From assembly GCF_947499845.1 (NCBI RefSeq), contig NZ_CANMPM010000006.1:1-64000 (forward strand): a DNA stretch of 64,000 nt, in the 5' to 3' direction. The position numbers and the translations under genes are program-made. The stretch comes from an uncultured Pseudokineococcus sp. (GTDB lineage Bacteria > Actinomycetota > Actinomycetes > Actinomycetales > Quadrisphaeraceae). The notes under the pieces were generated by a model. It had not been told where the DNA came from, searched no databases, and saw only the letters and a list, made by a program, of their open reading frames with translations. Shown here piece after piece: positions 3,950 to 38,486 of the stretch (its first letter is position 1; each line of letters opens with the position of its first letter).

Positions 3950-4975
3950 GTGAGCCACATCACCACCTTCTACGAGCCGGGCTCCGATACGGGGGGCTGG
4001 CGGGGCACGCGCGTCGCCGCCGTCCAGGTCGCCCCGGTCCTGCTCGACCTCGCGGCCAACGCCGCTCGCTCGGCCGCGGCCATCACCGCCGCCGTCCTCG
4101 ACGGTGCGGACGTCGTCGTGCTGCCCGAGCTCGTGACGAGCGGCTACGTGCTGGCCGACGTCCACGAGGCGCGGTCGGTGGCCATCCCCGCGACCTCCCC
4201 GGTGCTCGCCGGGTGGGCCGAGGCCGGCAGCGCCCGGCCGGGCGCCGTGGTCGTCGGGGGCTTCCTCGAGCTGGCCGAGGACGGGCGCCTGCACAACAGC
4301 GCGGCCGTCGTCGACGCGGCCGGCGTGCGCGCCGTCTACCGCAAGGTGCACCTCTGGGACGCCGAGCGGCACCTCTTCTCGCCCGGTGACGCCCCGCCGC
4401 CCGTCGTCGAGACGGCGCACGGCCGCGTCGCCGCGCTCATCTGCTACGACCTCGGCTTCCCCGAGTGGCCGCGCACGGCGGCGCTCGCCGGCGCCGACCT
4501 CATCGCCGTCCCGACGAACTGGGCGGCCGGCTACCGGCCTCCGGGGGAGCGGCCGATCGGCCAGGTCGCGGCCATGGGGGCGGCGCGCGCCAACCACGTC
4601 GTCGTCGCGTGCAGCGACCGGACCGGCGTCGAGCGCGGCGTCGAGTGGAGCGAGGGCTCCGCCGTCGTCGGCGCCGAGGGCTGGGTGCTCAGCGAGGACG
4701 TCGCGGGCGAGGGCGTCGCCTGGGCGACGGTCGACCTGCAGGCCGTCCGCGACCGCCGGCTCGGCCGGCACGGGCACCTGTGGGGCGACCGGCGCCCCGA
4801 CCTCTACGGCGCGCTCATCGCGCCCCTGCTCCCGCACGCCGACGAGGCCGTGGCCGCGCACGTGCCCGCCGTCCGCGAGCCGGTCGGCCCGGAGGTCGGC
4901 GTCGAAGTCGGCGCTGCGGTCGGCTCTGCGGTCGGCGCCGAGGTCGCCGCTGCGGTGCCGGCGCCCGTCGAGTGA
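3950..4975 (+). CDS. Nitrilase-superfamily amidohydrolase
   Basis: A 341-residue carbon-nitrogen hydrolase. The catalytic triad is visible: Glu60 in VLPELVTSGY, Lys132 in YRKVHLW, and Cys165 in ICYDLGFPE. It should hydrolyse an amide, nitrile or N-carbamoyl group in the cytoplasm; the closest look is to N-carbamoylputrescine amidase or aliphatic amidase types, but specificity is open. GTG at 3950 has a fine GGAAGGAG seven bases upstream, which beats the far upstream ATG at 3812. The last 30 residues are an oddity: a Val/Gly/Ala-rich repetitive tail (EVGVEVGAAVGSAVGAEV) encoded by 15–18 bp tandem repeats after the normal end of the fold. Confidence 0.85.
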   Translation: MSHITTFYEPGSDTGGWRGTRVAAVQVAPVLLDLAANAARSAAAITAAVLDGADVVVLPELVTSGYVLADVHEARSVAIPATSPVLAGWAEAGSARPGAVVVGGFLELAEDGRLHNSAAVVDAAGVRAVYRKVHLWDAERHLFSPGDAPPPVVETAHGRVAALICYDLGFPEWPRTAALAGADLIAVPTNWAAGYRPPGERPIGQVAAMGAARANHVVVACSDRTGVERGVEWSEGSAVVGAEGWVLSEDVAGEGVAWATVDLQAVRDRRLGRHGHLWGDRRPDLYGALIAPLLPHADEAVAAHVPAVREPVGPEVGVEVGAAVGSAVGAEVAAAVPAPVE

Positions 4976-5131
4976 CCGTCGGGCGGGCGCCCGTCATGCA
5001 CGGCCGCCCGCCCGCCACCACCGGCCCGTCCGGCACGCCCGGCCCCTGACGAGCACGCCCTCGGACGTGACCGCCGTGGGAGCATCCGCGCCGGGCGTCC
5101 GGACGGTCCGGTCCCCGGCGGAGGAGAGCGC

Positions 5132-13013: not shown

Positions 13014-13838
13014 TCACCGCAGGACGACGTCGAGCGCACGGCGCCTGTCCCTCGCCGGGGTGCCGAGCTCGACAGCGACCTCGTCGGCGCCCCGCACGGA
13101 CGCGGCCGTGGCGTCGCGCACCAGGGGCGGCAGGGCGGTGGCGAGCAGGTCGCGCAGCTCCTCCGGCGTCGCGGGCGCCGACGGCTCGAGGGCGCAGGCC
13201 CGCGCGACGAGGCCGCGCGTGTGCTTGGCCATGTGGGAGACGACGGACCGCTTCCCGTCGCTCTCGCGCAGGACCCGCACGGACGCCGTCCGGGAGGCCG
13301 TCTCGCCGCGCGGGGTCCAGGCCGCGGCGTAGTCGGCGGAGCGGCAGTCGACGACGAGGCGGCCCGCCGCCAGGGGGTCGAGGGCCGCGCGCAGCGGCTC
13401 GCGCCACAGCGCGGCCAGCCCGCCCAGGTCGGGCAGGGCGACCCCCATGGACAGCCGGTACGGCGGCACGCGGTCGTCGAGCCGCAGGGCGCCCCACGCC
13501 GCCGAGGAGACGAGGAGCCGCTCGTCGGCGCGCTGGCGGGCGCCGTCGTCGAGGGAGGCGAGGTCGAGGGCGTCGTAGAGGACGCCGGTGTAGAGCTCGG
13601 CCACCGGGACGGCGGGCTCCGTGCGCCAGCGGGTGGTGCGCTCGGCCTCCGGGCGCAGCTGCTCGCTGCCGGCGCCGAGGGCCTCGCGGCCCGCGCGGGT
13701 GCGGCTCAGCCGGGCCGCCGCGCCGAGCACCCGGCGGCGGGTCGGCGTCAGGCCGGGGGAGGAGAGGGCGCGCAGGTCGACGGGCTCGCCCTCCGCGGCG
13801 CCGGTCTTGCCCTGGGACGGCGGGAGCAGCACGAGCAC
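13014..13838 (-). CDS. yaaA: YaaA-family peroxide stress protein
   Basis: A 274-residue YaaA (DUF328/UPF0246) protein. The N-terminus LVLLPPSQGKT is the family hallmark, with LYTGVLYDALDL in the middle and VVSHMAKHTRGLVAR near the C-terminal third. Known from E. coli YaaA: a DNA-binding protein that lowers free iron during peroxide stress. GTG at 13838. The neighbours are a permease and a LysR regulator on the same strand, with over 90-bp gaps, so it is probably a single-gene unit. Confidence 0.88.
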   Translation of the reverse strand: MLVLLPPSQGKTGAAEGEPVDLRALSSPGLTPTRRRVLGAAARLSRTRAGREALGAGSEQLRPEAERTTRWRTEPAVPVAELYTGVLYDALDLASLDDGARQRADERLLVSSAAWGALRLDDRVPPYRLSMGVALPDLGGLAALWREPLRAALDPLAAGRLVVDCRSADYAAAWTPRGETASRTASVRVLRESDGKRSVVSHMAKHTRGLVARACALEPSAPATPEELRDLLATALPPLVRDATAASVRGADEVAVELGTPARDRRRALDVVLR

Positions 13839-29448: not shown

Positions 29449-30752
29449 TCATGTCGGGCCTCGGAAGCCCTGGCGAGCCCCGGTGGGCCGGTCGGGGGCC
29501 CGGTCGGGGGTGGAGCCGCGCTGTGCGGCCCGCTCGTCGCGCAGGAGCGCGAGGACGGCGGCGCCGCCCGCCAGCGACCCGGCGGCGAGCACCGCGAGCG
29601 CCGCGGACCACGACGCCCGCGCGGCCATGACCGGGACGAGCCAGACGGTGACCGCCGTCGTGAGGTAGCCCGCGGCCATCTGCACGGCGACCGCCCCGCC
29701 CACGAGGTCGGGGTCCGCGTGGCGGGTGACGAGCGCGGACAGCTGGGCCGAGTCGGCGACGACCCAGAAGCCCCAGACCGCGACGAGCGCTACCACGACG
29801 CCGAGCGGTGCGCCGCGCAGGACGGCGAGGGCCAGGGCGGCCGAGCTCGAGCCCGCGACGCACACGAGGACGACCACGGGCTGCCCCACCCGGTCGGCGA
29901 GCAGGCCGGCGGCCACGCAGCCGAGCGCCCCGGCGGCCACGCACGCCGCCGTCAGCGCGGGGACCGCCGTCGAGGGGTCCGGCAGCGCGGCCACGGCGGC
30001 GGTCCCGGCGAGCAGGGCCCCGTCCAGGCCCACATCGCGTACAGCTCCCACATGTGGCCGACGTACCCCAGGACCGCGAGCACGACGGGGCGGCGGCGCA
30101 GCGCGTCGAGCGCGGCCCGGCGGTCGAAGGCCGCCGGGGAGCGGCCGTGCGGGCCGGAGCGCCGCAGGAGCAGGGCCAGCCCGGCGCCGAGGAGGGCGCC
30201 CGCGCTCGTCACCACGACGACGAGCCGCCAGGGCGGGCCGCTCGCCCCGGTGCTCGCCCCGGCCGCGGCGACGGCGTGCGGCAGCGCGGTGCCCAGGGTC
30301 AGCGCCGCCACCATGGCACCGAGGGCCACGCCGCGGCTGCGGCGGGACCACGTCGTCGTCTCCTTCAGCGCCGAGGGGTAGACGAGCGCCAGCGCCGCAC
30401 CCGTGAGCAGCCGCGAGGCGACGGCCGCCGCCGGGCCCGCGGCGAGCAGCAGCCCCGCGTTGGCGAGGGCGGCCGCGGCGGCGCCGACGGCCAGGAGGCG
30501 CCGGGCGGGGACGGCGTCGGCGAGCCCCGTGCCGGCCGAGACGAGCGCGCCGACGACGAAGCCCAGCTGCACGCCCACCGTCAGGAGCGCGGACGCGGTG
30601 GGGGAGAGGTCCCAGGCGGCGGCCAGCTGGGGCACGACCGCGGCGGCGGAGAACCACGTCCCCATCGCCAGGGCCGTGGCCGCGGCGAGGACGGCCAGCG
30701 CCGTCGCGGGGTAGCGGGGGAAGGCTGCCCGAGCCGCGCCGTCCGCCGTCAC
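29449..30752 (-). pseudogene. MFS transporter split by a one-base frameshift
   Basis: Two reading frames together make one 434-residue, 12-helix major facilitator protein. The N-terminal half starts at GTG 30752 (after GGGAGGAGG) and runs to MWELYAMWAWTG, then falls into Pro/Arg-rich shadow. The C-terminal half continues in another frame as ALLAGTAAVAALPDPS with six further helices and a stop at 29449. The break is at the C-run 30018–30021: five C instead of four would restore TGALLAGT. Either a recent inactivating deletion or a homopolymer sequencing error. GHMWELYAMWAW is typical of nitrate/nitrite- or drug-type MFS members; substrate unknown. Confidence 0.8.
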
Positions 30753-31146
30753 GACCCCTCCTCCCGCGCCGCCGGACCGGGTGCCGGGGCCCGTGCGGCG
30801 GACAGGCTCGCACGCGGAGCGCGCGCCCGCGGGGCCTCGGCGGAGGAGGGGGGCCCGGGAGGTGGTTCGAGAGGGGCTCCGACGAGGGGATCGGAGAGGC
30901 AGGTCACGCCCAGGTCTCGCGGGAGGGGCCTCCCGTACGGTGGACGGGTCCGGGCGGCCCGATGCGCCGCCGGGCGTCGCGGCCCCGTGGGCCGCCGGGA
31001 CCGCCGAGCGGCCGCCGGGCGCGAGGGCGCCGACGCCGACCGACCCCGCGCCGCCCGCACGAGGCCACCGGCCCGTGCGCGCCCGTCCGTCGTCCCGCCC
31101 ACCGGCGGGACCGCCGCGGGGTCCCGCCCACCACGGGAAGGACCCG
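30753..31146. other. 394-bp divergent intergenic region
   Basis: Lies between the start codons of the MFS gene and the betaine-binding lipoprotein, so it should hold both promoters. CGGGAGGGGCCTCCCG at 30920–30935 is a short inverted repeat and the block GTCCCGCCCACC is repeated near 31093–31131. No convincing -10/-35 pair, riboswitch or small gene was found. Confidence 0.5.
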
Positions 31147-32103
31147 ATGACCCGCACCACCACGACCACCCGCGCCCTGGCCGCCTCCGGGGCGGCGCTC
31201 GCTCTCGCCCTCACGGCCGGCTGCGGCAGCGACGACGGCGCCTCGGCCGACGGCGGCTCCGACGGCATCACCGTGCGGACCACCGAGTTCTCCTGGGTCG
31301 CCGCCACGCTGACCAACGAGGTCGTGCGGCAGGTCGCCGCCGACCACCCCGACCTCGGCGTCGCCGACCTCGAGACCTCCCAGCTCGACCCGGCCGCCGC
31401 CTGGGCCGGCGCCGGCAACGGCGACCTGGACCTCGTCACCGAGGTGGCGCTGCCCAACCAGCAGCCGCTGCTGGACCAGACCGAGGGCTTCGAGCTCCTC
31501 GGCGAGGTCTACAGCGGGGCCGACCAGGGCTGGTACGTGCCGAGCTACGCCCTCGAGCCGGGCCAGCCGCTCGAGGGCCTGACGTCGGTCACGCAGCTGC
31601 CCGAGTACGCCGACGCGCTGGGCAGCACGCTCTACGACGCCGACCCGGGGTGGATCACCACCGAGCAGAACGAGGCGCGGCTGGCGGGCTACGACATCGG
31701 CTTCGAGCACTCGACGTCGAGCGCCGCCGCGCTCTTCGCGCAGCTGGACCGCGCGTACGAGCGCGAGGAGCCGGTGCTCGTCTACCTCTACCAGCCGCAC
31801 TGGGTCTTCGCGCAGTACGACGTCACGAAGCTCGAGGAGCCCAACCCCTACGAGGAGGGCTGCTTCGCCGAGGGCGGCGCGGGCGACTGCGCCATGCCCG
31901 ACTACGCCGGCGGCGTGGCCGCGAGCGACGAGCTGCAGGAGGAGGTGCCCGCCTTCACCGAGATGCTCTCCCGCATGGAGATCCCCGTCGACGACATGGA
32001 CGCGATGATCGCCGAGGTCGACGTCGAGGAGCGCGACGCCGCCGACGTCGCCCAGGAGTGGGTCGAGGAGAACGACGACGCCGTGGAGAGCTGGGTCGGC
32101 TGA
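31147..32103 (+). CDS. Glycine betaine/proline-type ABC substrate-binding lipoprotein (OpuAC/ProX family)
   Basis: A 318-residue exported lipoprotein. Signal peptide with lipobox LTAGC (Cys at about residue 27), then an Asp/Gly/Ser linker. The mature part matches the OpuAC family: DLVTEVALPNQQ, DQGWYVPSYAL, and the YLYQPHWVFAQYDV block whose aromatic residues normally cage the quaternary ammonium group. ATG at 31147 follows GGGAAGGACCCG. No permease or ATPase is adjacent, so it is an orphan binding protein that must dock on a transporter encoded elsewhere or act as a sensor. A strong hairpin follows. Confidence 0.85.
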   Translation: MTRTTTTTRALAASGAALALALTAGCGSDDGASADGGSDGITVRTTEFSWVAATLTNEVVRQVAADHPDLGVADLETSQLDPAAAWAGAGNGDLDLVTEVALPNQQPLLDQTEGFELLGEVYSGADQGWYVPSYALEPGQPLEGLTSVTQLPEYADALGSTLYDADPGWITTEQNEARLAGYDIGFEHSTSSAAALFAQLDRAYEREEPVLVYLYQPHWVFAQYDVTKLEEPNPYEEGCFAEGGAGDCAMPDYAGGVAASDELQEEVPAFTEMLSRMEIPVDDMDAMIAEVDVEERDAADVAQEWVEENDDAVESWVG

Positions 32104-32120
32104 CCCACCCGACCTCCCGC

Positions 32121-32155
32121 CGAGGGCGGTGCCGCGACGAGCGGCGCCGTCCTCG
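32121..32155 (+). terminator. 15-bp hairpin after the betaine-binding protein
   Basis: CGAGGGCGGTGCCGC pairs with 32141–32155 using two G·T pairs, 5-base loop GACGA, 17 bases after the stop. The remaining 215 bp to the next gene show no clear feature. Confidence 0.65.
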
Positions 32156-32370
32156 CGCGCGTCCCGGGCCTCGCGACACGGGAGCGGCCCGCGCCTCCGG
32201 AGGGCCCTCGCGGCCCGGCGGCTGCTCCGGGCGGGGGAGCGGAGGGCGCGGACGGCCCGCTCCCGCCCGGCTCGTGCCACGCTCGCCCCGGACGTGCGGC
32301 GGGGGCCCGTGGAGTGCGGGCAGGGGACGACGGCGGGGGCCATGACGAGCGGACCGGGGGGCGGGGCGCG

Positions 32371-34053
32371 GTGACCGCGCGCCTGCTGCCGGCGGACCCG
32401 GAGTTCGCCACGGCGAGCGAGCGGCTGCTCGCGACCACGCTGCGCGACCAGCTGCCGGACGACGCGGTCGTCGTGTGCGGACAGCGCTTCGCCTACCAGG
32501 GGCGGGACCTCGAGGCCGACCTCGTCGTCGCCTGGCCGGGCGTCGGCGTCGCCGTCGTGGAGGTCAAGGGCGGCAGCGTCTGGCGCAGCGACGGCCAGTG
32601 GTGGCAGGAGTGGTCGGGCGGGCCGCGCCGGGTGCACCCGGTCGACCAGGCACGGCGCTGCCGGTACGCCCTCCGTGACGTCCTCCGCCGGCACTCCCGG
32701 GTGAGCGACCTGCGCGCGGCCCACTTCGCCGCCTTCCCCACCACCGACCTGCCGGAGGGCTTCACGGCGCCGGACGCGCACCGCTGGATGCTGCTCGACC
32801 GGGCCGACGTCGCCCGGGCGGCGGACCGCATCAAGGACGGCCTCGAGCGCACGCCGGACGGGGAGGTCCCCACCCGGGAGGACGTCGAGGCTCTCGTGGC
32901 GTGCCTCACCGGCCCCTCGGTGCCCCCGCGGGAGGTTCTCGCGACGCTGCGCGAGCGCGAGGCCGCGTGCGAGCTGCTCACGCGGGAGCAGGCGCGGGTC
33001 CTCGACGGGCTGGAGGCCGCGTCCCGCGTCGAGGTCCGGGGCGGTGCGGGCACGGGCAAGACGTGGCTGGCGCTCGAGAAGGCGAGGCGCCTGGGGCGCA
33101 GCGGCCAGCGCGTCGCGCTCATGTGCTACTCGCGGGGGCTCGCCGCCTCGCTCGAGCGCGAGGTCGCGCCGTGGCCGCGGCGAGAGCGACCCGCCTACGT
33201 CGGCACCTTCCACGGCCTCGCGGCACGGTGGGGCGCCCCGCCCGGGTCGGACGACGACGGCGACTACTGGGAGCGGCGGCTGCCCGAGCAGATGGCCTCT
33301 CTCGCGACGGCCCTGCCGATCGCCGAGCGCTTCGACGCCGTCGTCGTCGACGAGGCGCAGGACTTCGACGCCGGCTGGTGGCCCGCGGTGCTCGCCGTCC
33401 TGCGGTCGCCGCAGCACGGGTGCCTGTACGTCTTCACCGACGACGGCCAGCGCGTCTTCGGGCGACGTGGCCGGCCCGCCGTCGACCTCGTGCCGTTCAC
33501 CCTCACCGAGAACCTCCGCAACACCCAGCAGATCGCGCAGGTCTTCGGCAGCCTCGCGCCGGCGCAGATGCGCTACCGCGGCGGCGACGGGCCGGCCGTG
33601 AGCTTCGTGCCCTGCGCCGCGGGGGACGCGGTCGCGCGGGCCGACGAGGTGGCCGACGGCCTGCTGGACGACGGGTGGCCCGCGTCGTCCGTCGCGCTCC
33701 TGACGACGCACCACCGCCACCCCGTCCAGGTCGAGCGGCAGGCCCACGGGCAGGACGCCTACTGGGCGACGTTCTGGGAGGACGACGACCTCTTCTACGG
33801 GCACGTGCTCGGCTTCAAGGGCCTCGAGCGCCCGGCCGTCGTCCTGGCCGTCGACGGCTTCCGCGACCCCGCCCGCGCCCGGGAGATGCTCTACGTCGGC
33901 CTGTCACGGGCCCGCGACCTGCTCGTCGTCTGCGGGGACCCCGAGCAGATCCGTGTGGTGGGCGGCGAGGGCGTGGCGCGGCGGCTGCTGCGGCCCCACC
34001 CCGGTGAGTCGGCGGGTCAGGGCAGTGGAGCGGGGGGTATCGGGCTCTCGTAG
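32371..34053 (+). CDS. NERD nuclease-related domain / superfamily 1 helicase-like ATPase
   Basis: A 560-residue protein. Residues 5–110 are a NERD domain with the PD-(D/E)xK-like core GRDLEADLVVAWPGVGVAVVEVKGG split as Asp50 and Glu64-x-Lys66. Then comes a UvrD/DUF2075-like motor: Walker A GGAGTGKT at 224–231, Walker B VVVDEAQDF around 325–332, motif III TDDGQRVF, ENLRNT, FKGLERPAVVLAV and a final YVGLSRARDLLVV. It should be an ATP-driven DNA or RNA translocase with nuclease activity; such proteins often occur in defence islands. GTG at 32371. Its last 37 bp overlap the end of a convergent gene. Confidence 0.82.
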   Translation: MTARLLPADPEFATASERLLATTLRDQLPDDAVVVCGQRFAYQGRDLEADLVVAWPGVGVAVVEVKGGSVWRSDGQWWQEWSGGPRRVHPVDQARRCRYALRDVLRRHSRVSDLRAAHFAAFPTTDLPEGFTAPDAHRWMLLDRADVARAADRIKDGLERTPDGEVPTREDVEALVACLTGPSVPPREVLATLREREAACELLTREQARVLDGLEAASRVEVRGGAGTGKTWLALEKARRLGRSGQRVALMCYSRGLAASLEREVAPWPRRERPAYVGTFHGLAARWGAPPGSDDDGDYWERRLPEQMASLATALPIAERFDAVVVDEAQDFDAGWWPAVLAVLRSPQHGCLYVFTDDGQRVFGRRGRPAVDLVPFTLTENLRNTQQIAQVFGSLAPAQMRYRGGDGPAVSFVPCAAGDAVARADEVADGLLDDGWPASSVALLTTHHRHPVQVERQAHGQDAYWATFWEDDDLFYGHVLGFKGLERPAVVLAVDGFRDPARAREMLYVGLSRARDLLVVCGDPEQIRVVGGEGVARRLLRPHPGESAGQGSGAGGIGLS

Positions 34054-34361
34054 GCCTCGGCGAAGACCTGCGCGACCTCCGGCCAGAGCCGTGCGCGACC
34101 CTCCTCGACAGAGGTGAGGTCCGCGGCGTGGTCGTCGAGCACCACGAAGTCATGGGGGATGACGCGGCCCGACCGGTCTCGGCGACCGAGGGGGTCAGGG
34201 AAGCGGAGGGCGCCGCCGACAGCGGTCGTCTGCCACAGCTCGTCGTCCATCACTGCCCCATCGAAGGCGCCTTCGTAGGCAAGGAGGGGGTCGTCGAGCC
34301 CCCCGGTGCGCAAGATGCGGAAGCCCCAGGTCCGGCCCCGCGTGGCCCACAGGAAAGTCAC
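34017..34361 (-). CDS. 114-residue partner protein of the P-loop GTPase, unknown function
   Basis: A 114-residue protein that starts at GTG 34361 inside the stop of the GTPase gene (GTGA overlap, 34358–34361), so translation is coupled. N-terminus TFLWATRGRTWGFRILRTGG is rich in aromatic residues, followed by an acidic middle (DDPLLAYEGAF, MDDELWQ) and HDFVVLDDHAADL; no signal peptide or membrane segment. The compact alpha/beta look would suit an adaptor or GTPase-activating partner, but this is inference. Codon use and G+C are lower than in flanking genes, like its partner. The 3' end overlaps the NERD helicase gene by 37 bp. Confidence 0.75.
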   Translation of the reverse strand: MTFLWATRGRTWGFRILRTGGLDDPLLAYEGAFDGAVMDDELWQTTAVGGALRFPDPLGRRDRSGRVIPHDFVVLDDHAADLTSVEEGRARLWPEVAQVFAEAYESPIPPAPLP

Positions 34362-35503
34362 TCGAGGCCCCGGAGCAGCACCTTTGCTCGCTCTGCGTCC
34401 TCGAGCGCCAGCTTGAAGGCCGCCAACGTGGCCGCCGCGTACTCCTGCTTCTCGAGTGCGGTGGCGTGCACCTGCTTCAACTTTCCGCCAGCGAGGTCGG
34501 CAGCAGCCTTGGCGATGCGCGGCCCGAGTAGGCCAGCCAGCACCCCGGCAGGTCCCGGCAGCGGGAGCGGCACTCTCCGTCCTACTAGGAGACCTGCCAG
34601 ACCGTCGACGTTCTCGAGCAACGCGTCGCCGACCTTGGCGGGCAACGCCTTGAGGGACGCCCACCGGGCGTGGGTCTCGAGAGGCAGGACGGCCGCCATG
34701 GGGTGGATGAGGTCGACGCCTACGCGATCGAGTACGCGGATCCGCTCGGCGTCGAACTTGGCCGAGGACAAGAGCACGAAGTCCGCCCCGAGTGCGAGGG
34801 CCTCGTCGGCCTCGACGAGCTCGCCGACCGCTCGGCGCAGTGCGTCGAGGTCGTCGCCGGCCTTCTCGATCAGGAGGTCTCGGAAGTCGTAGACGTCCAT
34901 GTGGGGGAGCAGGTCGGCCTTGGAGAGCGCCATGACCCAGATGCGGGGGAAATTCGTCAAGCGTCCTTCGTCCGCGAGGAGACCGTCCTTCAAGGACAGC
35001 AGGCCGTTGCGTAGGTTCGTCATGAGGAGTTTGAGGTACTTCTCCTCCTGCCCGCTCTCCTCCACCAGGCGCTGTCCGTCGACGAGCACGAGAGCCACGT
35101 CGGCGCCAAGGAGCTGCTTGAAGGTCTCTACGCGTCGTCGCCCCTCCTCGGCGTTGACCGGAGTCTCCTCGAACCAGTCACCGGGGTAGTCGTGCCACAC
35201 CAGTCGGAGGGCGTCGACGGACGCCCTCTTGCGGGAGTCGCCCTTGAATCGGGCGGAGAACGCGTAACGGGATGCGCGGAACTTGTTGGTGGGTGGCCTC
35301 TTGTCCGCGTTGCGCATGCCGAGGTAGTTCTTGTGCAGACGGATGCCCTGACTGACGTCGTCGGCTGTGACGTTGTACAGGGATGTCCGGTCGAATTCGG
35401 CTTCCTGCATGGCGCCGTAAAAGGATGACAGCAGGACCGTCTTACCGCTGCCGCTCTCCCCGAAGACGGCGATCGACTGCTCCAGCACCTTCGGTGGCTT
35501 CAT
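34358..35503 (-). CDS. TRAFAC-like P-loop GTPase, possible conflict/defence system
   Basis: A 381-residue GTPase. G1/Walker A GESGSGKT at residues 15–22, a G3-like DYPG at 105–108 after a hydrophobic strand (LRLVWH), DVALVLVDGQ as the following strand, and a G4-like SKAD at 194–197 in place of NKxD. Residues 300–330 are hydrophobic and Gly/Pro-rich (GLLVGRRVPLPLPGPAGVLAGLLGP), perhaps a membrane-touching hairpin. The C-terminus is a charged helix. The wording resembles TRAFAC GTPases of multi-gene biological conflict systems (double-GTPase type). G+C is around 62% by eye against about 74% nearby, pointing to horizontal transfer. Operon with the 114-residue gene. Confidence 0.75.
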   Translation of the reverse strand: MKPPKVLEQSIAVFGESGSGKTVLLSSFYGAMQEAEFDRTSLYNVTADDVSQGIRLHKNYLGMRNADKRPPTNKFRASRYAFSARFKGDSRKRASVDALRLVWHDYPGDWFEETPVNAEEGRRRVETFKQLLGADVALVLVDGQRLVEESGQEEKYLKLLMTNLRNGLLSLKDGLLADEGRLTNFPRIWVMALSKADLLPHMDVYDFRDLLIEKAGDDLDALRRAVGELVEADEALALGADFVLLSSAKFDAERIRVLDRVGVDLIHPMAAVLPLETHARWASLKALPAKVGDALLENVDGLAGLLVGRRVPLPLPGPAGVLAGLLGPRIAKAAADLAGGKLKQVHATALEKQEYAAATLAAFKLALEDAERAKVLLRGLE

Positions 35504-35560
35504 GCCGCGACCCTATGCACTGCTGTTGGCCCGGCGCAGAGGAACCCGGGCGGGAACGCA

Positions 35561-35597
35561 CCGCAGCCCCCGCCGGCGGACCGGCGAGGGGCTGCGG
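35561..35597 (-). terminator. glnA terminator hairpin
   Basis: CCGCAGCCCC-CGCCGG with CCGGCG-AGGGGCTGCGG, about 16 bp with one bulged base and a CGGA loop, 15 bases after the glnA stop. Confidence 0.75.
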
Positions 35598-35611
35598 GAG
35601 GCCCGGACGAC

Positions 35612-37036
35612 TCAGATGTCGAAGTACATCTCGAACTCGTGGGGGTGCGGGCGGAAGCGGATCGGGTCGATCTCGTTGGTCCGCTTGTAGTCGATCCAGG
35701 TCTCGATGAGGTCCTCGGTGAAGACCCCGCCGCGGGTGAGGTACTCGTGGTCGGCCTCGAGCGCGTCGAGGACGGCGCCGAGCGAGCCGGGCACCTGGTC
35801 GATGGCCGCGTGCTCCTCGGGCGGGAGCTCGTAGAGGTCCTTGTCGACCGGGGCCGGCGGCTCGATGCGGTTCTGGATGCCGTCGAGACCCGCCATGAGC
35901 ATGGCCGCGAACGCCAGGTAGGGGTTGCTCGAGGGGTCCGGCACGCGGAACTCGATGCGCTTGGCCTTCGGGTTCGACCCCGTGATCGGGATGCGGACGC
36001 AGGCCGAGCGGTTGCGGGCCGAGTAGACGAGGTTGACCGGCGCCTCGTAGCCCGGCACCAGGCGGTGGTAGCTGTTCACCGTCGGGTTCGTGAAGGCCAG
36101 CAGCGACGGCGCGTGCTTGAGCAGGCCGCCGATGTACCAGCGGGCGACGTCGGAGAGGCCGCCGTAGCCGCGCTCGTCGAAGAAGAGCGGCGAGCCGTCC
36201 TTCCACAGCGACTGGTGCACGTGCATGCCCGAGCCGTTGTCGCCGAAGAGGGGCTTGGGCATGAAGGTCGCCGTCTTGCCGTGCTGGTGCGCCACGTTCT
36301 TGATGACGTACTTGAACAGCATGACCTTGTCGGCCGACTTGAACAGCTCGTCGAACTTGTAGTTGATCTCGGCCTGGCCGGCCGTGCCCACCTCGTGGTG
36401 GGCGCGCTCGACCTCGAGCCCGAGGGCGTCCAGGGCCAGGACCATCTGGTCGCGCAGGTCGGCGAAGTGGTCCACCGGCGGCACGGGGAAGTAGCCCCCC
36501 TTGTAGGGCGTCTTGTGCCCGAGGTTGCCGCCCTCCTCCTTGCGCCCCGTGTTCCAGGCGCCCTCGACGGAGTCGATGTGGTAGTAGCTCTCGTGCTGGT
36601 TCGTCTCGAAGCGGACGTCGTCGAAGACGTAGAACTCCGCCTCGGGGGCGAAGAACGCGGTGTCCGCGATCCCGGTCGAGCGCAGGTACTCCTCGGCGCG
36701 GCGGGCGATCTGCCGCGGGTCGCGGGAGTACGCCTCGTCGGTGAAGGGGTCGACGATGCCGAAGTTGACGACGAGCGTCTTCTCCGCCCGGAACGGGTCG
36801 ACGAAGGCGGTCTCGACGTCCGGCACCAGCTTCATGTCCGACTCGTGGATCGCCTGGAAGCCACGGATCGAGGAGCCGTCGAACATCTGGCCGGTGGTGA
36901 AGAAGTCCGCGTCCACGGAGGCGGCCGGCACGGTGAAGTGCTGCATCACCCCCGGCAGGTCGCAGAACCGGACGTCGATGAACTTGACGTCGTTCTCGGC
37001 GATGTAGGCGAGCACCTCGTCGGCGTTGGTGAACAT
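35612..37036 (-). CDS. glnA: Type I glutamine synthetase
   Basis: A 474-residue GS-I, the full family length. Seen: [20 protein letters not shown] (metal Glu), [10 protein letters not shown], the ATP-binding block [27 protein letters not shown] and the adenylylation-site region [11 protein letters not shown] with Tyr near residue 400, so it is the GS-I-beta, adenylylation-controlled kind. It makes glutamine from glutamate, ammonia and ATP and is the main nitrogen entry enzyme. Start ATG at 37036 follows AGGAGAGTGG. A four-half-site GlnR operator sits 175–212 bases upstream. Monocistronic, with its own terminator. Confidence 0.97.
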
Positions 37037-37338
37037 CCACTCTCCTGGCGGGGTCGGAGGTCGTCGGTGGCGGTCGGGCCGCCGGTGGTGCCTGTGGTGG
37101 TCCCTCGGTGTCGTGCTGGGTGTCGTGCGGGTGGTGCGGGCGGCGGCGGGGCCCCGCGCTGCGGGAGCGGTCCGGCGCGCCGTCTCGGGAGGGGAACCTA
37201 GGAGCGGGCGGTTGCCCGCTCGTCACGCGAGTGTTTCCGACGTGTTGCGCGGCGCGCGGTTGCGACGCGCCGCGCGGGCCAGCCGGGCGGGCGGCACCGC
37301 CCGCGGGGCGCCGGAGGGCGCCCGTCTAGCGTGGCGCC
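37037..37338. other. Divergent glnA–RDD promoter region with long glnA leader
   Basis: About 300 bp between the glnA and RDD starts. It holds the GlnR operator at 37211–37248, a possible glnA -10 TAGGTT at 37195–37200 (minus strand) and then a leader of about 155 bases containing CACGACAC-type short repeats. No riboswitch fold was recognised. Confidence 0.55.
37211..37248 (-). promoter_or_regulatory. GlnR operator, four half-sites
   Basis: Read on the glnA strand: GCAAC-n6-GAAAC-n6-GTGAC-n6-GCAAC, all spacers exactly six bases. This is the a-b-a-b arrangement gTnAC-n6-GaAAC known for GlnR boxes at actinobacterial nitrogen genes, with one mismatch in the first and one in the last half-site. 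It should let GlnR adjust glnA to nitrogen supply and might also act on the divergent RDD gene. Confidence 0.8.
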
Positions 37339-37749
37339 GTGGCGAGGAGCGGACCGAGCGGTGCGGAGGCGTCCTGGCCGGGGCGCCGCCTGGGCCTGCC
37401 CCGGGAGGGCTCGCGGTCCGTCGCACGGACCGGTCGGCGGCTCGCCGGCGTCGCGGTCGACTGGGCGCTGGCGCTGCTCGTCTCGAGCGCCCTGCTGGGC
37501 GGCGACCCCTGGGCGACCCTCGGCGTCTTCGCGCTCCTGCACGCCGTCGGCGTCGGCACGGTGGGCGGCAGTCCCGGGCACCTGCTCCTCCGTGTGCGGG
37601 TGCTGCGCGTGGACGGCGCATGGCCCGGTCCGTGGCGCGCGCTCGTCCGCACCCTCCTGCTGTGCCTCGTCATCCCGGCCGCCATCTGGGACGCCGACCA
37701 GCGGGGGATGCACGACCGCCTGGCCGGCACCGTCGTCGTCCGCCGCTAG
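37339..37749 (+). CDS. RDD-family membrane protein
   Basis: A 136-residue protein with the RDD pattern: basic N-terminus with GRRLAGVAVDWALALLVSSAL (the R and D of the name), a second helix WATLGVFALLHAVGVGTV, the loop GGSPGHLLLRVRVLRVDG and a last helix LLLCLVIPAAIWDADQRGMHDRLAGTVVV. Divergent location next to glnA is common in actinobacteria. Function unknown; RDD proteins have been linked to ion transport and membrane stress. GTG at 37339. Confidence 0.88.
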   Translation: MARSGPSGAEASWPGRRLGLPREGSRSVARTGRRLAGVAVDWALALLVSSALLGGDPWATLGVFALLHAVGVGTVGGSPGHLLLRVRVLRVDGAWPGPWRALVRTLLLCLVIPAAIWDADQRGMHDRLAGTVVVRR

Positions 37750-37835
37750 GACGACCCGGGCGTCGGCGTCCGCCGGGCCCCCGCCGGGACGAGGACCGGA
37801 CGCCCCGCGCGGCGCAGGCCTGCCAGCATCGTGCC

Positions 37836-38486
37836 GTGACCGAGCTCCCGCCGCCGACGCCCACCGCCGGACCCGCCGCGCCGCGCGTGCGACCCGCCTC
37901 CGGCGCCGGGGCGCGCGACGACGTCCTCGTCGTCGCCGCCCTGGCGGTGGAGGCCGTCCACGTGCCCGCGCACCTGCCCCTGCTGCTCACGGGGCCGGGC
38001 AAGACGGCCGCGGCCACGGCGGTCGCCGCCGTCCTGGCCGCCCGGCAGCCAGCCGATCGCCCGCTCGTCGTGGGCGTCGGCACCGCGGGCGCGCTGCGCG
38101 CGGGCGTGAGAGGCCTGCACGTGCCGCGCAGCGTGGTGCACCACGACATCTCCGCCGACGCCCTGGCCCGTCTCGGCGCGCCGACGACCACGGAGCTGGC
38201 GCTGGACGCGCTGCCGGGGGAAGCCTCGGGAGATGTGGTGCTCGCCACGGGCGACGTCTTCGTGGCCGACGAGGACGTCCGGGAGCGGCTCGCGCGGCGC
38301 GCCCACCTCGTCGACATGGAGGGCTTCGCCGTGGCGTGGGCCGCCCGGTCGCTGGGCGCGCGCGTCGTGCTCGCCAAGCACGTCAGCGACGCCGCCGACG
38401 AGGGCGCCTGGTCGTGGCCGGACGCCGTCGCCGCGAGCGCGCGGGCGCTGGGGGAGTGGCTGGCCGGCGTCCTGCCCCCGCGCTGA
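37836..38486 (+). CDS. Nucleoside phosphorylase/MTA–SAH nucleosidase-like protein
   Basis: A 216-residue protein of the PNP/UDP phosphorylase superfamily. The glycine-rich LLLTGPGKTAAATAVAAVLA and LVVGVGTAGALR give the first half of the base/ribose pocket, and LVDMEGFAVAWAAR carries the ME(G/S)xA motif that binds ribose and base. KHVSDAADE provides the catalytic Asp region. It is close to 5'-methylthioadenosine/S-adenosylhomocysteine nucleosidases; exact nucleoside is uncertain. GTG at 37836, preceded by a 35-residue-long low-complexity N-terminus. Confidence 0.8.
   Translation: MTELPPPTPTAGPAAPRVRPASGAGARDDVLVVAALAVEAVHVPAHLPLLLTGPGKTAAATAVAAVLAARQPADRPLVVGVGTAGALRAGVRGLHVPRSVVHHDISADALARLGAPTTTELALDALPGEASGDVVLATGDVFVADEDVRERLARRAHLVDMEGFAVAWAARSLGARVVLAKHVSDAADEGAWSWPDAVAASARALGEWLAGVLPPR

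What the first reader, a model, noticed from the sequence alone, without database searches (positions are those of the whole stretch)
34017..35503. Low-G+C two-gene island: P-loop GTPase plus a translationally coupled 114-residue protein
Between a G+C-rich helicase gene and glnA sits an operon whose bases and codons differ visibly from everything around it (about 62% against about 74% G+C by eye). The first gene has G1 GESGSGKT, a G3-like DYPG and G4-like SKAD; the second starts inside its stop. TRAFAC GTPases paired with small partners occur in known bacterial conflict systems (double-GTPase and related). This exact two-component pairing is not one I know by name, so it could be an undescribed minimal GTPase defence or stress system acquired horizontally.
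Basis: partly seen in the sequence, partly recalled or inferred. Interest (0 to 1): 0.75.

Follow-up and report, generated by a model that had tools for sequence, protein, structure and literature searches.

The report
Mobile bacterial GTPase with small partner
A switch-like GTPase and a small partner protein, encoded together, have moved between many actinobacteria, sometimes next to anti-virus genes; the partner's predicted shape resembles domains that control such switches in complex cells, so this may be a stripped-down immune or stress switch.

Summary
Window 34017-35503 (-) encodes a 381-aa GTPase with conserved G motifs and a 114-aa partner whose start overlaps the GTPase stop. Both have the lowest GC3 (0.85/0.86; mean 0.97) and worst codon fit of the genes scored. 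Plain G+C is less telling (66/71%; glnA beside them 67%).

The GTPase passes Pfam's cut-off for Double-GTPase 2; its modelled fold is nearest YcjX. The partner matched nothing in Pfam, NCBIfam, PADLOC or PDB sequences. Its AlphaFold model (pLDDT 95) has the order of elements of longin domains, which regulate GTPases elsewhere (best Z 6.4: suggestive only).

All 47 loci with the whole gene and its downstream DNA have the partner next (4-nt overlap in 41 of 45 measured). A same-genus genome lacks a 3.35-kb stretch holding the pair plus a NERD-UvrD helicase. The pair is sparse, taxonomically mixed, also on plasmids, and beside restriction or other defence genes in several loci.

Best reading: a mobile, minimal GTPase-regulator switch of conflict islands; a new variant of DO-GTPase systems without recognisable GAP1. 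The defence role and the regulator's biochemistry are inferred.

The parts
34358..35503 (-). GTPase, 381 aa (P0001): DO-GTPase2 / YcjX-like P-loop GTPase with a helical C-terminal part (residues ~263-372) that holds a poorly modelled, moderately hydrophobic stretch (~294-334)
   Evidence: Pfam PF19993 40.1 bits, cut-off 27; 20 of 20 homologues match it; model pLDDT 82.4, VIA Z 15.5 to YcjX; hydropathy
35438..35461 (-). G1 / Walker A, GESGSGKT (residues 15-22)
   Evidence: sequence; most positions at least 90% conserved in 41 homologues
35180..35191 (-). G3, DYPG (residues 105-108) inside W-H-D-Y-P-G-(E/D)-W; Asp at 109 in this copy, Glu in at least 90% of homologues
34913..34924 (-). G4, SKAD (residues 194-197); Lys and Asp invariant in 41 homologues
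34017..34361 (-). Partner, 114 aa (P0002), predicted longin-like fold (strand-strand-helix-strand-strand-strand-helix-helix); no family in the libraries searched
   Evidence: AlphaFold2 pLDDT 95.0, pTM 0.89; Foldseek and VIA; no Pfam/PADLOC/NCBIfam family
34358..34361 (-). GTGA: GTG start of the partner overlaps the TGA stop of the GTPase
   Evidence: 4-nt overlap in 41 of 45 loci measured
34152..34196 (-). Partner signature D-P-x-G-R-x-D-x-x-G-R-x-I-P-H (residues 56-70); D56, D62, R66, I68 and H70 invariant in 41 homologues
32371..34053 (+). NERD-UvrD helicase (open frame from 32314), convergent with the pair and overlapping the partner's 3' end by 37 nt; co-absent with the pair in G001
   Evidence: Pfam NERD 1.7e-10, UvrD_C_2, UvrD-helicase; PADLOC RTasNERD-Hel 3.3e-32 and C3a187 'NERD+UvrD' 2.8e-20
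32201..35546 (.). Cassette absent from same-genus genome G001 (limits read from BLAST ends; the left limit is soft by some tens of bases)
   Evidence: window 30435-32200 = L121 1-1756 (94.7%), window 35547-38483 = L121 1814-4748 (96.1%); 57 nt between them in G001
35545..35612 (-). Strong hairpin just after the glnA stop (terminator-like); the cassette begins directly beyond it
   Evidence: -49.1 kcal/mol, z -4.1 against 200 shuffles; the hairpin-forming sequence is also in G001

Best explanation
A horizontally mobile two-protein GTPase switch. The GTPase is a member of the Pfam DO-GTPase2 family with a YcjX-like core; the 114-aa partner is a single longin-like domain that binds it and sets its nucleotide state (GAP, GEF or scaffold), the two being made in step by coupled translation. 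The switch belongs to conflict (anti-mobile-element) or stress islands and works either on its own or with a neighbouring effector, here the co-mobile NERD-UvrD nuclease-helicase. Shown: obligate co-occurrence, overlap of the genes, gain or loss as a unit, taxonomic mixing, G-motif conservation, predicted folds. Inferred: binding, GTP turnover, regulatory direction, and a defence function.
For: All 5 G-motif regions or their equivalents conserved. Pfam DO-GTPase2 above cut-off in P0001 and matched by 20 of 20 homologues. Partner directly downstream in 47 of 47 loci with the whole GTPase gene and downstream DNA; in one drawn set of 306 phylum genomes both occur in the same two genomes, adjacent. 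4-nt overlap in 41 of 45 measured. Divergence of the two proteins is correlated (Mantel r 0.48 within Actinomycetota, 38 pairs, 0 of 999 permutations as high). Cassette absent in G001 with flanks intact; sparse: 6 of 394 class and 18 of 396 order genomes after removing unrelated hits; tree mixes genera and orders; on Curtobacterium plasmids. Partner model: longin order of elements, and 48 of the 50 listed VIA rows come from longin/roadblock-type complexes (subunit identities partly recalled). Defence-type neighbours in several loci.
Against: Partner Z values (6.4 and below) lie under the 8 that the tool warns may mean only a common arrangement; Foldseek gave no match at E <= 0.001. No binding or enzymatic data. 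Many loci show no defence gene in the neighbours I looked at; the neighbourhood comparison is small, hand-read and not a formal test. Only 6 of 47 loci have the helicase within 2 kb. No classical effector domain is visible in the pair.
Confidence: 0.55

Rival explanations
1. Cut-down member of the DO-GTPase-GAP1 conflict systems proper: the partner is a divergent stand-alone GAP1-N domain, and GAP1-M, GAP1-C and effectors have been lost.
For: Same GTPase family as the GTPase next to GAP1-N2 in L084; GAP1 is typically encoded downstream of the GTPase (PMC7159879, section 27 read); a forced alignment puts WGFR on SGFRF and D-x-x-G-R-...-H on D-x-S-G-R-...-H, score 15.1 reached by 5 of 150 column shuffles.
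Against: hhalign gives probability 0.5-0.8%; no GAP1 family hit for any of 20 partners at E <= 10. GAP1-N1 sequences could not be obtained for a profile comparison (0 of 148 genomes, no positive control).
Confidence: 0.4
2. Envelope or membrane-stress GTPase module in the manner of YcjX, not a defence system: the GTPase docks on the membrane through its C-terminal hydrophobic stretch and the partner regulates it.
For: YcjX is the nearest fold (Z 15.5 against 11.7 for the next); partners in two Lentisphaerae contigs carry a C-terminal transmembrane segment (hydropathy 2.9 and 2.4); a 2024 paper places a DO-GTPase-family protein with psp operons and predicts a role in membrane stress (PMC11237479, passages seen).
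Against: DUF463 (YcjX) Pfam cut-off not met for P0001 (12.2 bits against 25); sparse distribution, plasmids and restriction neighbours fit a conflict role better than a housekeeping stress role.
Confidence: 0.25
3. Toxin-antitoxin-like selfish pair: one protein harmful, the other its restraint, kept by addiction.
For: Two small overlapping genes, mobile, on plasmids, decayed copies present (L037, L151, L051).
Against: GTPase motifs strongly conserved; partner has no toxin or antitoxin family match; a stop-broken GTPase with its partner intact (L051) and a partner remnant without a detected GTPase (L151) both survive.
Confidence: 0.12
4. Ordinary native operon of the glnA region with drifting composition.
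For: Same place beside glnA in two species of the genus (window, G002).
Against: Absent beside glnA in same-genus G001 and G003; elsewhere in unrelated contexts; foreign codon usage.
Confidence: 0.03

Closest known systems
DO-GTPase-GAP1 systems (Kaur et al. 2020, PMC7159879; Pfam DO-GTPase2 PF19993, GAP1-N1 PF20012, GAP1-N2 PF20013)
   Same: GTPase family by Pfam; a partner gene directly downstream; mobile neighbourhoods; acidic residue after the G3 glycine.
   Different: Partner is a single ~110-aa domain with no GAP1 match; no zinc ribbon on the GTPase; no GASH or FNIII protein or second GTPase in the cassette.
YcjX (DUF463), PDB 6nz4/6nz5/6nz6
   Same: Closest fold of the GTPase model (Z 15.5, 252 residues aligned, rmsd 4.1).
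   Different: Sequence below the DUF463 cut-off; different partner gene; sparse and mobile here.
Longin/roadblock regulators of GTPases (MglB-MglA, Ragulator-Rag, Mon1-Ccz1, SRX-SRbeta)
   Same: Predicted order of elements of the partner and its pairing with a GTPase.
   Different: No sequence similarity found; weak Z; the invariant D/R/H cluster is not something I know from longins (recalled); no evidence of a dimer.
NERD-UvrD helicases (PADLOC RTasNERD-Hel, C3a187 'NERD+UvrD')
   Same: The third gene of the cassette matches these models.
   Different: The helicase is common without the pair (22 of 59 relatives match it, 2 of 59 have the pair) and the pair mostly lacks it.

Membership tests
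DO-GTPase (Pfam DO-GTPase2) | score over the curated cut-off | tested here: met
   40.1 bits against 27; 20 of 20 homologues match at E <= 0.01
DO-GTPase | conserved glutamate in the Walker B motif (PMC7159879); taken here as the residue after DxxG, which is my reading | tested here: inconclusive
   Glu at position 109 in at least 90% of 41 homologues, Asp in the window copy
DO-GTPase-GAP1 system | downstream GAP1 protein with N, M and C domains | tested here: not met
   partner is 114 aa; no GAP1 family in P0002 or in any of 20 partners at E <= 10
DO-GTPase-GAP1 system | partner is at least a GAP1-N domain (distant homology) | tested here: inconclusive
   hhalign probability 0.5-0.8%; shuffle test 5 of 150; GAP1-N1 not available
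DO-GTPase-GAP1 system | GASH (with N1) or FNIII (with N2) component | tested here: not met
   none among the three cassette proteins; genes outside the cassette were not scanned
DO-GTPase-GAP1 system | second paralogous GTPase (38% of systems, so not required) | tested here: not met
   a single GTPase gene in the cassette
YcjX / DUF463 | score over the Pfam cut-off | tested here: not met
   12.2 bits against 25; 4 of 20 homologues reach E <= 0.01
Longin fold | order of elements strand-strand-helix-strand-strand-strand-helix-helix | tested here: met
   model of P0002, pLDDT 95; the longin order itself is recalled
Longin / roadblock superfamily | clear structural match or homology | tested here: inconclusive
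   best Z 6.4 (8yqg_B, rmsd 3.8, 104 aligned); Foldseek best E 0.029
MglA-MglB type switch | partner acts as GAP or GEF on the GTPase | not testable with these tools
   needs biochemistry
Known anti-phage system in PADLOC-DB 2.0.0 | model match for both genes | tested here: not met
   GTPase only mad3/mad8 at E 0.015-0.017; partner none
NERD-UvrD helicase | NERD plus UvrD-type helicase domains | tested here: met

The most novel reading that the evidence does not exclude
A bacterial, horizontally mobile GTPase-longin immune switch: the smallest form of a broad class in which GAP1 of the DO-GTPase systems is itself a longin/roadblock-type regulator, so that bacterial conflict systems and eukaryotic Rag/Ragulator or Rab-GEF switches share the same two-part logic. 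The invariant Arg/Asp/His cluster of the partner would be the GTPase-facing or catalytic site, and the NERD-helicase one of several exchangeable effectors.
Probability: 0.22. Interest if true: 0.85.

Novelty: new variant of a known kind. Interest (0 to 1): 0.6.

Why it matters
DO-GTPase systems were proposed as immune switches from genome context, and I found no structure or mechanism for them in my paper searches. This pair is the same GTPase family reduced to one GTPase and one small domain, both predicted with usable confidence, which makes the switch biochemically tractable: two small soluble candidates and a testable prediction (the partner binds and regulates the GTPase). If the partner is a true longin, a link between bacterial conflict GTPases and longin-regulated GTPases of archaea and eukaryotes becomes directly testable.

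Tried and rejected
Two-gene island as the mobile unit: rejected for this window, because G001 lacks the helicase together with the pair. A fixed glnA-locus function: rejected. Simple G+C argument: weak, because glnA is equally low.

Phage or prophage origin: two scans of viral contigs gave no relative; the one 'phage' record (MT835574, unannotated, 'UNVERIFIED') is up to 96-98% identical over several kb to bacterial genome locus L044 and I take it as bacterial DNA.

GAP1-N identity by sequence: not supported, weakly suggestive by shuffle test. GAP1-N1 search in 148 genomes gave nothing, with no positive control.

Weak hits dropped before counts: G345, and G484 and G534, lie in genes that begin like ABC-transporter ATPases; G540 lies in what reads as a larger DO-GTPase operon. 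In one search, seven partial matches (22 to 76 profile positions, E 2.6e-4 to 0.0097) were not counted. In one search one of three matches (G077) is a fragment beside a GTPase fragment. In one search a 57-residue match in G007 (E 9e-4) was not counted. Loci left out of the 47: L061 and L064 (same contigs as L039 and L040), L074 (contig ends at the GTPase), L037, L082 and L083 (GTPase fragments), L151 (partner remnant only), L088 (fragments). The 47 are not all independent: L038 and L044 are near-identical, and window/L012 and some genera are related. L051 carries an in-frame stop in the GTPase.

Defence neighbourhood: 19 neighbours picked by eye from 12 loci were scanned with Pfam; five of them had no family at the limits used or none over its cut-off (L067:12360, L069:11650, L073:8992, L046:7494; L046:8393 below cut-off), and L065:8473 is DUF2130 and L062 a UvrD helicase without further context. 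In the comparison by PADLOC at E <= 1e-30, 115 neighbours of 18 loci matched 36 families (25 shown) and 145 genes from 18 other regions of the same contigs matched 23 (15 of them kinase models named PD-T4-6, one member each); the near set includes generic models (mad3, DndA/SspA) and the control includes JetA, WYL, mad3 and mad6. I did not map all rows to loci, so this is suggestive only. 148 control genes were called; one very long one was left out of A7 and two more from A8 to fit the residue limit.

Literature: no paper holds 'DO-GTPase2'; searches for longin with anti-phage, roadblock with phage defense, and NERD with GTPase and defense island gave nothing on this pair in the listings. Absence is only for that library.
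Full report
What is there. On the minus strand, downstream of glnA (35612-37036), lie a 381-codon GTPase gene (34358-35503) and a 114-codon gene (34017-34361) that starts with the GTG of a GTGA overlap. Convergent with them is a NERD-UvrD helicase gene (32371-34053, +) whose 3' end overlaps the partner's by 37 nt. G+C over the pair is 67.1% against 77.2% for the window; glnA is as low (67.3%), but GC3 (0.853, 0.860) and codon fit are the worst of the genes scored, so the foreign look is real.

The GTPase. Pfam DO-GTPase2 is the only family over its cut-off (40.1 bits, cut-off 27), and 20 of 20 homologues match it. Over 41 homologues W103, H104, D105, P107, G108, W110, K195, D197, S246 and A248 are invariant and the G1 glycines, Lys and Thr at least 90% conserved, so nucleotide binding with the guanine-type KxD is expected. 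The model (pLDDT 82) is closest to YcjX (Z 15.5, 252 residues, rmsd 4.1; next row 11.7); Foldseek ranks eEF1A and YcjX together. Residues 294-316 and 326-334 are poorly modelled; this stretch is moderately hydrophobic in many homologues, which may mean membrane contact (inference).

The partner. No family in Pfam, PADLOC or NCBIfam and no meaningful PDB sequence match (best E 0.7). Thirteen positions are invariant in 41 homologues: W5, R8, G9, W12, G13, Y29, R53, D56, D62, R66, I68, H70, W93. The model is confident (pLDDT 95.0, pTM 0.89) with order E-E-H-E-E-E-H-H. Of the 50 VIA rows listed, 48 come from entries with longin or roadblock subunits (identities partly recalled), led by an Asgard longin (8yqg_B, Z 6.4) and including SRX, the longin partner of the GTPase SRbeta (1nrj_A, Z 5.1); the other two are TraR and LasR. 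Foldseek found nothing at E <= 0.001, best 0.029 for GATOR1. Z below 8 can be a common arrangement, so the fold class is likely and homology unproven. In two Lentisphaerae contigs the partner has a C-terminal transmembrane segment.

Pairing. I examined every locus holding the whole GTPase gene and its downstream DNA: window; 18 loci from G genomes in which the GTPase frame is whole (L012-L017, L039-L050); L051 with an in-frame stop; G884; one plasmid (L036); one record labelled phage (L038); 24 from named genome contigs. That is 47, and 47 have the partner directly downstream (in L077 by the motif in a three-frame reading, as BLAST gave only E 0.024). The genes overlap by 4 nt in 41 of 45 measured; exceptions L017 (-7 with my choice of start), L049 (+17), L078 (+16), L079 (+24); L051 and L077 not measured. 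In one drawn set of 306 phylum genomes the partner profile and the GTPase profile each hit the same two genomes, adjacent (only some candidates per genome were scored, and seven weak partial GTPase matches were discounted). Pairwise divergences correlate (Mantel r 0.755 over 40 pairs, 0.482 over the 38 Actinomycetota, 0 of 999 permutations as high). One plasmid holds a partner remnant with no GTPase found (L151), so decay occurs.

Mobility. Same-genus G001 (about 95% identical DNA) has both flanks and 57 nt in place of window 32.2-35.55 kb; G003 has glnA without the cassette but a different far flank; G002 has all three genes. So helicase and pair were gained, or lost, together. The pair is in 2 of 59 relatives, 6 of 394 class genomes and 18 of 396 order genomes after removal of unrelated hits (the sets overlap). 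The GTPase tree (support values not shown) interleaves Arthrobacter with Streptomyces and Modestobacter and sets the window's genus beside Micromonospora. Copies sit on Curtobacterium plasmids. Genomic surroundings differ widely.

Neighbours. The NERD-UvrD helicase lies within 2 kb of the pair in 6 of 47 loci: window and L012 (convergent, downstream), L038, L044 and L047 (divergent, upstream), L040 (downstream, frameshifted); a further fragment is 5.3 kb off in L015. As it is common on its own (22 of 59 relatives at E <= 0.001, weak hits included), it is a recurrent associate, not an obligate part. Other defence-type neighbours: type IIG R-M (L013), HKD+Snf2 (L014), HEC-05/GmrSD (L017), C5 methylase and DrmB (L045), type I R subunits (L065, L073), GmrSD_N (L072), Vsr (L067), type I R fragment (L076), type ISP R-M (L036, with CBASS-like genes and TniQ; and L069 by similarity) and a phage integrase (L050). 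Counting the helicase, 17 of 47 loci have such a neighbour; these were picked by eye and the rest not fully scanned. A small comparison with other regions of the same contigs leans the same way but is not a formal test (details under Tried and rejected).

Comparison with the known. Kaur et al. (PMC7159879; section 27 read, other passages) define DO-GTPase systems by the GTPase plus a three-domain GAP1, with GASH or FNIII components. Here the GTPase qualifies; the partner has no GAP1 match and the cassette no GASH or FNIII. A profile comparison with six GAP1-N2 domains gave under 1% probability; forced to full length it aligns a shared D-x-x-G-R-...-H signature with a score reached by 5 of 150 shuffles. 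GAP1-N1 could not be compared. So: same GTPase family, not a canonical system, possibly its minimal relative. PMC11237479 (passages) mentions a DO-GTPase-family protein beside psp genes and predicts a membrane-stress role, a live rival.

How it most likely works. The partner, made in step with the GTPase, binds it and governs its GTP cycle, as longin or roadblock proteins do for their GTPases; a phage or plasmid cue flips the switch, and the output is either the GTPase's own action (perhaps at the membrane) or a neighbouring nuclease-helicase. The first clause rests on co-conservation and predicted folds, the rest on neighbours; neither is shown biochemically. I put the switch reading at about 0.55 as a whole and the defence part alone near 0.45.

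Noticed in passing
L058:8913-9875 and 13580-13735; L081:2589-3560 and 4895-5080: Two Geodermatophilaceae-type loci have a quinone-oxidoreductase-like gene near the pair and a second, truncated copy of the same family; in L058 the two copies bracket the pair over about 4 kb, which could mark an insertion with duplication.
   Followed up: no
L038 (MT835574.1): A record labelled 'Bacteriophage sp.' is 96-98% identical over several kb to a bacterial genome locus (L044) and carries metabolic genes by their look; probably bacterial DNA mislabelled as phage.
   Followed up: partly
L051:9220-10383: The GTPase of this copy has an in-frame TGA while its partner frame is intact: a decaying copy.
   Followed up: no
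L037:5977-7461 (Frondihabitans plasmid 2): N-terminal GTPase fragment cut off at an IS3-family transposase.
   Followed up: no
L151:5001-5210 (Curtobacterium plasmid D40): Unannotated partner remnant in front of a type ISP restriction gene, the same order as in L036, with no GTPase detected.
   Followed up: partly
L077:11926-13896: In the Desulfoarculaceae contig two further membrane-protein frames follow the pair on the same strand; possible extra components.
   Followed up: no
L052:4758-12252: What reads as a larger DO-GTPase operon (dynamin-like GTPases, an Hsp70-like protein, two P-loop GTPases), found through a weak hit.
   Followed up: no
window 35545-35612: Very stable hairpin after glnA (-49.1 kcal/mol), also present in G001; the cassette begins just beyond it.
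   Followed up: yes
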